This document shows, piece after piece, positions 6,626 to 8,375 of a stretch of DNA of 64,000 bases (the stretch's first letter is position 1; every line of letters starts with the position of its first letter). The stretch spans positions 62,001 to 126,000 of the forward strand of contig NZ_RRCH01000003.1 in assembly GCF_003862495.1 (NCBI RefSeq), written 5' to 3'. The position numbers and the translations under genes are program-made. Below the pieces are notes generated by a model that was given only the letters and a program-made list of their open reading frames with translations, had not been told where the DNA came from and made no database searches. The stretch comes from Halocatena pleomorpha. GTDB taxonomy: Archaea; Halobacteriota; Halobacteria; Halobacteriales; Haloarculaceae.

Positions 6626-6701
6626 ACACCGGGTTGGTCGATGCCGATGAAAAGCGATCGGATTTCCACGGTCGCCGGACGTGACGGTCGTAAGCAATAA
6701 C

Positions 6702-6715
6702 TTAGACGAGTCTAA
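6702..6715. promoter_or_regulatory. Palindromic operator, DtxR/SirR-like
   Basis: TTAGACGAGTCTAA: two 6-bp inverted arms around 2 bp, 13 bp before a short open frame and 86 bp before the GDT1-family gene. Its form resembles sites of DtxR/SirR metal-dependent repressors, which fits a cation transporter downstream. It overlaps the place expected for the TATA element of a leaderless transcript starting near 6728, so a bound protein would block transcription. The assignment to a regulator is inference. Confidence 0.5.
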
Positions 6716-6727
6716 TATTATAGTGAG

Positions 6728-6799
6728 ATGAGTCCGGATTCGGTTGTCGATGAATCACTCGATCTCGCGGCGACTGGCCGAACCCGAGAGGTGACGTAA
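6728..6799 (+). CDS. Possible 23-residue leader peptide
   Basis: An ATG 13 bp after the palindrome opens a 23-codon frame encoding an acidic, non-hydrophobic peptide (beginning MSPDSVVDESLD) that stops one base before the GDT1 start codon. The tight junction (TAA, one base, ATG) suggests translational coupling or a leader peptide. It has no recognisable domain, and its short length makes chance occurrence quite possible. Confidence 0.3.
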   Translation: MSPDSVVDESLDLAATGRTREVT

Positions 6800-6800
6800 C

Positions 6801-7514
6801 ATGACCGGATTTCTGAGCATCATCGTCATTGCTGCAGTTACACAGCTCACAGTTCTGCCCGGCGAGAAGGGTCAGGTCATCATCGCTGGACTCTCAACGC
6901 GGTACAAGCCGCTGGTGGTCGTCGGTGCAGCCGCGACCGCCTTCGGGGTATGGACCGTCTTCGAAATCCTGTTCGGGCAGATGATTCAGGGGCTGTTTCC
7001 AGAGGCTGTTCTCAATGCCATCACAGCAGGGCTGTTTCTGCTGTTCGCTGTCGTGCTGTTTCGCTCAGCTCGGAACGGTTCGGAGCCGTTTGCTGGTCTG
7101 GATTCTGCTGAAGGAACCGAAAGACCGTCAACAGAGTCCTCGCGTCTGTCGTTCGATCTCTTCGGACACACGTTCGATGGCCGATTCGGACAGTTTTGTT
7201 CCATCTTCGCACTGATGGCGGCTGGAGAGTTCGGTGACAAGACGCAACTGATCACAATCGGGCTGGCGGTCCAATACGGAGCGACATCAGCGATCTGGCT
7301 GGGCGAAATGATCGTTATAATCCCTGTGAGTCTAGCGAACGCCTACCTCTTTCACCGGTTTGCCGACCGTTTCGATGTTCGCACTGTTCAGCTTCTCGGG
7401 GCGTTTTTGTTCGCTTTCTTCGGCGCGGACACCGTGCTGGCGATGGCTACCGGGGTGTCGGTTTGGGAGCGGTTCGTCGGAATAATTACCAATATCGTCC
7501 TCACAGCGGTGTGA
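6801..7514 (+). CDS. TMEM165/GDT1 (UPF0016) family cation transporter
   Basis: 237-residue integral membrane protein with about six helices in two homologous halves around a polar loop (residues 90-130). Family members exchange Mn2+ or Ca2+ for protons. The second half keeps the signature E-x-G-D-K-T (GEFGDKTQL, near residues 147-155), but the first half has PGEKGQV in place of the expected ELGDKT, a real departure in a cation-binding motif. The upstream palindrome suggests metal-dependent control, so manganese export is the simplest guess. Confidence 0.85.
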   Translation: MTGFLSIIVIAAVTQLTVLPGEKGQVIIAGLSTRYKPLVVVGAAATAFGVWTVFEILFGQMIQGLFPEAVLNAITAGLFLLFAVVLFRSARNGSEPFAGLDSAEGTERPSTESSRLSFDLFGHTFDGRFGQFCSIFALMAAGEFGDKTQLITIGLAVQYGATSAIWLGEMIVIIPVSLANAYLFHRFADRFDVRTVQLLGAFLFAFFGADTVLAMATGVSVWERFVGIITNIVLTAV

Positions 7515-8259: not shown

Positions 8260-8310
8260 TATCTTCTTTCAAGCAGAGAATCCCGCCATTCACGGCGGGG
8301 AGGATGTCAC
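8260..8310 (+). mobile_element. Orphan IS200/IS605-type right end (copy 1)
   Basis: A 51-nt segment with a CCCGCC...GGCGGG hairpin (8282-8299) ending GGAGGATGTCAC. It matches the segment at 25455-25505 at 45 of 51 positions, and flanking DNA differs on both sides. The pattern is what follows tnpB (IS1341-type) genes in haloarchaea, where the RNA scaffold used by TnpB ends. No transposase gene is nearby, so this is a solo end or a minimal non-autonomous element. Confidence 0.55.
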
Positions 8311-8375
8311 ATGGGTGTGCTTCGGCGTGTATACAGTCCAGCTGGGTTCGATCACCGGCAGGATAAACGTTATAC

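What the first reader, a model, noticed from the sequence alone, without database searches (positions are those of the whole stretch)
6702..7514. Palindromic operator, 23-residue frame and GDT1 transporter as a metal-response unit
TTAGACGAGTCTAA resembles DtxR/SirR-type repressor sites. It overlaps the place expected for the TATA element of a leaderless message. A 23-codon frame fills the space and stops one base before the transporter. The transporter's first signature reads EKGQ while the second is intact (GEFGDKT). In several bacteria GDT1-type Mn exporters are metal-regulated, so a similar circuit with a leader peptide is possible.
Basis: partly seen in the sequence, partly recalled or inferred. 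Interest (0 to 1): 0.6.

Follow-up and report, generated by a model that had tools for sequence, protein, structure and literature searches.

The report
Metal-repressor operator with fossil leader frame
In salt-loving archaea a metal-sensing repressor site is kept in front of a manganese-type membrane transporter, and the tiny reading frame between them looks like the stump of the repressor gene that once sat there.

Summary
The palindrome (6702-6715), the 23-codon frame (6728-6799) and the GDT1 transporter (6801-7514) are real. Of 85 distinct haloarchaeal GDT1 loci, 81 carry the site (10 or more of 12 specified bases); only 4 such sites occur elsewhere in the same loci. In 38 of 85 a SirR/MntR-type regulator gene lies between operator and GDT1, starts 4-15 nt after the operator, and in 32 of 38 its stop overlaps the GDT1 start. 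In the 43 regulator-less loci that keep the operator, a short frame of unrelated sequence takes its place: 37 have an ATG within 22 nt of the operator, and 33 of those 37 end at the GDT1 start. The window's frame still resembles the start of the Halorubrum-type regulator. I read it as the scar of a deleted sirR, kept open so that ribosomes pass to GDT1 by termination-reinitiation, not as a sensing peptide. The SirR gene now lies elsewhere, so control would be in trans. Metal and sign of the response are unproven; a repressor-type site is odd for an exporter. DtxR-type control of haloarchaeal GDT1 was probably predicted before; the scar architecture seems new.

The parts
6695..6700 (+). Weak TATA-like stretch (CAATAA) in the place where relatives have their TATA box, directly 5' of the operator
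   Evidence: Position-wise consensus of 81 promoters, A/T-rich at -7 to -3 from the operator; window sequence
6702..6715 (.). Operator TTAGACGAGTCTAA, predicted binding site of a SirR/MntR-type (DtxR family) repressor
   Evidence: 81 of 85 GDT1 loci; same element at sirR promoters and ArsP_2 promoters; unique exact copy in genome
6716..6723 (+). Alternative TATA-like stretch TATTATAG, shared with the nearest relative L037; if used, transcription would start near 6743 and skip the leader start
   Evidence: Sequence; differs from the consensus of the other loci
6728..6799 (+). 23-codon leader frame, read as the in-frame scar of a deleted sirR gene, coupled to GDT1 (stop TAA, 1-nt gap)
   Evidence: Position and coupling statistics; similarity to SirR N-terminus, peptide p=0.0033, DNA p=0.0004 by codon shuffling
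6788..6794 (+). Shine-Dalgarno-like GAGGTGA, 6 nt before the GDT1 start
   Evidence: Sequence; SD-like motif in 19 of 43 unlinked and 23 of 38 linked loci against 5% of 20-nt blocks
6801..7514 (+). GDT1 (UPF0016, PF01169) cation transporter, 237 aa; first motif EKGQ, second GEFGDKT
   Evidence: Pfam 91.7 bits; motif counts

Best explanation
The locus is what remains of an autoregulated haloarchaeal operon, operator - sirR - GDT1. In this lineage sirR was lost from the site by in-frame deletion, leaving a 23-codon stump that starts where sirR started and ends where sirR ended, next to the GDT1 start. The regulator is now supplied in trans by the SirR/MntR-type protein encoded on another contig (L035). 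Proposed working: metal-loaded SirR binds the palindrome just downstream of the TATA box and blocks initiation. When it is off, a nearly leaderless mRNA is made, a ribosome starts on the stump, and termination next to the GDT1 start codon, helped by a Shine-Dalgarno motif, passes it on to GDT1. Shown here: the sequence elements, their conservation, the regulator gene in the same place in relatives, and the positional constraint on the short frames. Inferred: SirR binding, manganese as the metal, repression, and termination-reinitiation. The sign of the metal response is not known.
For: (1) Operator in 81 of 85 distinct GDT1 loci, 4 such sites elsewhere in 457,640 positions. (2) 38 of 85 loci have a SirR homologue between operator and GDT1; its ATG is 4-15 nt after the operator and its stop ends at +4 of the GDT1 start in 32, +7 in 5, -96 in 1. 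(3) Of 43 regulator-less loci with the operator, 37 have an ATG within 22 nt (shuffles: mean 14.0, max 28 in 2000). In 33 of those 37 the stop falls at -12..+20 of the GDT1 start (frame-randomised null mean 9.0, max 17; frame-kept null mean 18.2, max 26; 1000 rounds each). One locus per group: 22 of 26. (4) The window stump resembles SirR N-termini (p=0.0033), most of all the Halorubrum-type L006 (21 of 33 nt). Those linked loci fall in the same starred 16-row clade as the window on the GDT1 tree. (5) 26 of 50 unlinked sirR genes keep the operator in their own promoter. (6) The genome has two PF02742 proteins. L035 has all three SirR domains including FeoA and Asp where IdeR has Met10 and Cys102 (alignment; the roles of those residues are recalled). 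(7) The other near-exact site in the genome fronts an ArsP_2 10TM heavy-metal exporter, and 28 of 30 loci of that family have the site too. (8) Overlapping gene pairs were strictly coupled in 13 of 14 tested cases, 9 of them from Haloferax volcanii (PMC6728339, abstract), and coupling needs overlaps or very short gaps (PMC10666635, abstract).
Against: Only 5 of 33 leader peptides resemble SirR at p<0.05, so the stump origin is not shown for most lineages. Two of 1359 window ATGs match SirR starts at least as well as the leader does (the leader itself is among the ATGs scanned). L035's own promoter has no operator. The window gap is +1, not the usual ATGA overlap. A second TATA-like stretch could start the message downstream of 6728. 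Four of 85 loci lack the site at 10/12 (L055 has a 9/12 copy in place). Coupled short frames also occur before some ArsP_2 genes (my reading of L138, L139), so they need not all come from sirR. A repressor site on an exporter is paradoxical for a metal-corepressed regulator.
Confidence: 0.68

Rival explanations
1. Plain trans-acting SirR operon without any role for the frame: the operator controls GDT1, the mRNA starts near 6743 from the second TATA-like stretch, and GDT1 is translated from its own Shine-Dalgarno motif. The 23-codon frame is an untranslated relic.
For: TATTATAG at 6716-6723 is shared with L037; GAGGTGA lies 6 nt before the GDT1 ATG; sequence of the leaders is not conserved.
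Against: Across 43 loci the short frames start and stop at fixed places far more often than chance; in L037 the frame is still open to the GDT1 start although a 110-bp inverted-repeat element lies inside it.
Confidence: 0.22
2. Functional leader peptide: the 23-residue peptide or its translation senses metal, or the peptide acts by itself.
For: The frame is present and its place is conserved.
Against: Peptides of 5-83 residues with no shared sequence; no terminator in the leader, no riboswitch, ordinary fold (z -0.83).
Confidence: 0.05
3. Iron rather than manganese circuit: the site is bound by the second DtxR-family protein (L036) or by both.
For: TTAGGC...GCCTAA sites of the same genome front genes that by eye are iron or siderophore genes, and the two motifs differ at one base per arm.
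Against: In relatives the TTAGAC form fronts sirR itself; SirR has an MntR-like acidic pair.
Confidence: 0.12

Closest known systems
DtxR-family regulons of Archaea (Leyn and Rodionov 2015, J Bacteriol 197:451; paper not held, recalled; cited in PMC7380456 where four halobacterial UPF0016 members are mentioned)
   Same: Palindromic DtxR-type sites and predicted links to metal transporters in Archaea; probably includes haloarchaeal GDT1
   Different: As far as I recall it does not describe the loss of the regulator, the leader frames or their coupling; I could not read it
Halobacterium SirR (passages in PMC3600143)
   Same: DtxR family, manganese-linked, described there as Mn(II)-dependent autorepressor
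   Different: Targets named there are uptake genes (zurM, zurA, ycdH); here the target is a GDT1-type transporter
Bacterial GDT1/MneA genes under the yybP-ykoY Mn riboswitch (passages in PMC7380456)
   Same: Metal-controlled GDT1 family transporter
   Different: DNA operator in place of a riboswitch (no Rfam hit above gathering); first motif EK[VGA]Q instead of E-x-G-D-(K/R)-(S/T)
B. subtilis MntR at mneP (abstract of PMC11275975)
   Same: MntR-type protein at a manganese exporter promoter
   Different: There four upstream sites and activation; here one site downstream of TATA, a repressor position
Termination-reinitiation at overlapping genes in Haloferax volcanii (abstracts of PMC6728339, PMC10666635)
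   Same: Stop-start overlap or very short gap couples translation
   Different: Known pairs are two real genes; here the upstream partner is a short, unconserved frame

Membership tests
SirR/MntR-type (DtxR family) operator | TTAG...CTAA inverted repeat in promoters of the regulator and of metal genes | tested here: met
   81 of 85 GDT1 loci, 26 of 50 unlinked sirR promoters, 28 of 30 ArsP_2 loci
SirR/MntR-type (DtxR family) operator | Bound by the regulator in a metal-dependent way | not testable with these tools
   Needs gel shift or ChIP
SirR (DtxR family with FeoA domain) | PF01325 + PF02742 + PF04023 in one protein of this genome | tested here: met
   L035: 71.7, 99.6 and 57.8 bits, all over cut-off
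MntR equivalog (NCBIfam) | Score over the curated cut-off of NF047407 | tested here: not met
   228.5 bits against a cut-off of 350; so MntR-like, not a named equivalog
GDT1 / UPF0016 | PF01169 and one or two E-x-G-D-(R/K)-(S/T) motifs | tested here: met
   91.7 bits; second motif GEFGDKT in 83 of 84, first motif EK[VGA]Q in 84 of 84
GDT1 / UPF0016 | Mn or Ca transport | not testable with these tools
   No transport data; no solved structure found
Attenuator / sensing leader peptide | Conserved peptide or alternative terminator structure | tested here: not met
   Unconserved peptides, no terminator in the leader, fold z -0.83
Translationally coupled gene pair | Stop and start overlap or lie a few nt apart | tested here: met
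   +1 nt in window; 33 of 37 loci near the start; coupling itself not tested

The most novel reading that the evidence does not exclude
Repeated loss of an autoregulatory metal repressor from its operon leaves a leaderless mini-frame without coding function, whose only conserved properties are where it starts and where it stops: a natural leaderless bicistron that loads ribosomes onto the transporter, while the same operator goes on working with the regulator in trans.
Probability: 0.5. Interest if true: 0.65.

Novelty: new variant of a known kind. Interest (0 to 1): 0.5.

Why it matters
It links a one-genome sequence oddity to an order-wide haloarchaeal circuit and says what to test: which metal SirR senses, why a repressor-type site sits on GDT1 and ArsP_2 exporters, and whether a short frame can be selected only as a ribosome landing pad. 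It also explains a class of small upstream frames that would otherwise be annotated as leader peptides or small proteins.

Tried and rejected
Bacterial promoter and terminator scan: nothing in the leader. Rfam: only RF01152 at 16 bits against a gathering score of 45, E 0.21, taken as chance. RNA fold of 6726-6815: z -0.83. Genome-wide count of the site with up to 2 mismatches: 34 places against 66 for the reversed pattern, so near-matches carry no signal by themselves. Halorussus and Halovenus MLSE/MLSD peptides looked like SirR starts by eye, but L028 and L030 do not pass the shuffle test (p=0.63, 0.53) and L029 is weak (p=0.09); L070 was not scored. One search treated minus-strand loci as plus strand; it was superseded and is not used for counts.

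Papers: Leyn and Rodionov 2015, the 2006 Halobacterium metal-stress paper and the 2017 NAR iron-network paper are not held; what I say of them is recalled or taken from citing papers. No paper on the leader frames or sirR loss turned up in the searches (search listings seen); the library lacks most subscription journals.

Full report
What was claimed and what is there. The window is haloarchaeal, on contig C23 of a 3.65-Mb, 61-contig assembly. The exact motif TTAGACNNGTCTAA occurs once in the genome where composition predicts 0.09. Allowing two mismatches there are 34 places, fewer than for the reversed pattern (66), so near-matches mean nothing by themselves.

Conservation. I collected GDT1 relatives from 195 genomes of the order (136 with a match; 30 loci kept) and from the genome collection (67 loci). 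After dropping 12 duplicates of 97 loci, 85 remained. Of these, 81 have a site with 10 or more of the 12 specified bases of TTAGRCNNGYCTAA within 1200 bases upstream of GDT1; in all of the same loci together only 4 further such sites occur in 457,640 positions. L023, L024, L055 and L081 fall short; L055 has a 9/12 copy in the right place. The column consensus is TTAGAC-GC-GTCTAA with an A/T-rich box at -7 to -3, so the operator lies just downstream of a TATA-like box. In the window that box is weak, and a second TATA-like stretch follows the operator.

The missing gene. In 38 of 85 loci the space between operator and GDT1 holds a SirR homologue. Its ATG lies 4-15 nt after the operator, and its stop ends at +4 of the GDT1 start in 32 of 38 loci, at +7 in 5 and at -96 in 1. 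In the 43 unlinked loci that keep the operator, 37 have an ATG within 22 nt of it (shuffled: mean 14.0, maximum 28 in 2000). In 33 of those 37 the first ATG frame stops at -12 to +20 of the GDT1 start, against a mean of 9.0 (maximum 17) when frame and order are randomised and 18.2 (maximum 26) when only the order is; in 21 of 37 the stop overlaps the start codon. With one locus per group it is 22 of 26. The 33 frames are 5-83 residues long and share no sequence. The four that fail are L026, L046, L049 and L070; L026 and L070 have a later ATG whose frame does end at +4.

Is the window's frame a sirR stump? Against a profile of linked SirR N-termini it is the best of 33 leaders (p=0.0033 by residue shuffling); L084, L039, L017 and L037 also have p<0.05, the other 28 do not. 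At the DNA level it matches the start of the Halorubrum-type sirR of L006 in 21 of 33 bases, p=0.0004 by codon shuffling; 2 of 1359 ATGs in the window reach that value. On the GDT1 tree linked and unlinked states need six changes (starred branches force two), and the window sits in a starred 16-row clade that includes those Halorubrum/Halonotius linked loci. The nearest relative, L037 (74% identical), has a longer open frame that contains a 110-bp stretch bounded by a perfect 15-base inverted repeat.

The regulator. The genome has two PF02742 proteins. L035 is a full SirR with HTH, metal-binding and FeoA domains, closest in NCBIfam to an MntR model but below that equivalog's cut-off. Aligned to IdeR it has Asp where IdeR has Met10 and Cys102 (the meaning of these positions is recalled). 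Its own promoter lacks the operator. Of 50 sirR genes taken as not next to GDT1 (L035, plus 49 that I chose by hand from the listing, a few of them from genomes without a GDT1 match), 26 have the operator within 80 nt upstream and 24, this genome's included, do not.

A regulon. The second-best site of the genome precedes an ArsP_2 / NF037962 permease, 'putative, 10TM heavy-metal exporter'. Of 30 loci of that family, this genome's included, 28 have the site within 400 nt, 20 of them within 100 nt. In contrast, TTAGGC-type sites of the same genome precede what by eye are iron uptake and siderophore genes (not run through family libraries). This suggests two DtxR-type codes in one genome, TTAGGC for iron and TTAGAC for the SirR set.

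How it most likely works. SirR in trans binds between TATA and start and represses. When free, the promoter gives a nearly leaderless mRNA, as 72% of H. volcanii coding transcripts are (PMC4983044, passages). The ribosome starts on the stump and is handed to GDT1 by termination-reinitiation (PMC6728339 and PMC10666635, abstracts). Binding, metal, sign and coupling are inferred. The sign is the weak point: a metal-corepressed repressor on an exporter would shut it off when it is needed. Either GDT1 of haloarchaea, with its EK[VGA]Q first motif (84 of 84), imports or carries something else, or SirR works inversely here.

Comparison with what is known. A review (PMC7380456, passages) mentions four halobacterial UPF0016 members as metal-controlled and cites the archaeal DtxR regulon paper there, so the operator-GDT1 link was probably predicted in 2015; I could not read that paper. 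The loss of the regulator from the operon and the retained coupled stump I did not find in print (searches listed under Tried and rejected).

Noticed in passing
L138 and L139, upstream of the ArsP_2 gene: Here the operator lies about 170 nt upstream, apparently 5' of the TATA box (activator geometry), and a short frame starting ATGAACGACGAT ends in an ATGA overlap with the gene start, so coupled leader frames are not confined to GDT1.
   Followed up: partly
L037:2829-2938: A 110-bp stretch with perfect 15-base inverted ends (ATAGGGACTGTTGTG) lies inside the leader frame of the nearest relative; it looks like a small mobile element that kept the frame open.
   Followed up: partly
L147, L149, L153, L160, L187-L191: Several unlinked sirR genes are followed by a LysE-like exporter gene (named by eye from the N-terminal sequence).
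   Followed up: no
L203-L205, L207-L212: More distant GDT1 genes (about 30% identity) also sit directly behind sirR; seven of these nine fetched loci show an operator-like site, L208 and L209 do not.
   Followed up: partly
window 8268-8330: Sequence AATCCCGCCATTCACGGCGGGGAGGATGTCACA resembles the right end of IS200/IS605-type elements (recalled, not tested); no transposase was looked for.
   Followed up: no
L200:1457, 1492, 2178: Three TTAG...CTAA sites lie within 740 bp at what looks like a siderophore gene cluster of the same genome.
   Followed up: no
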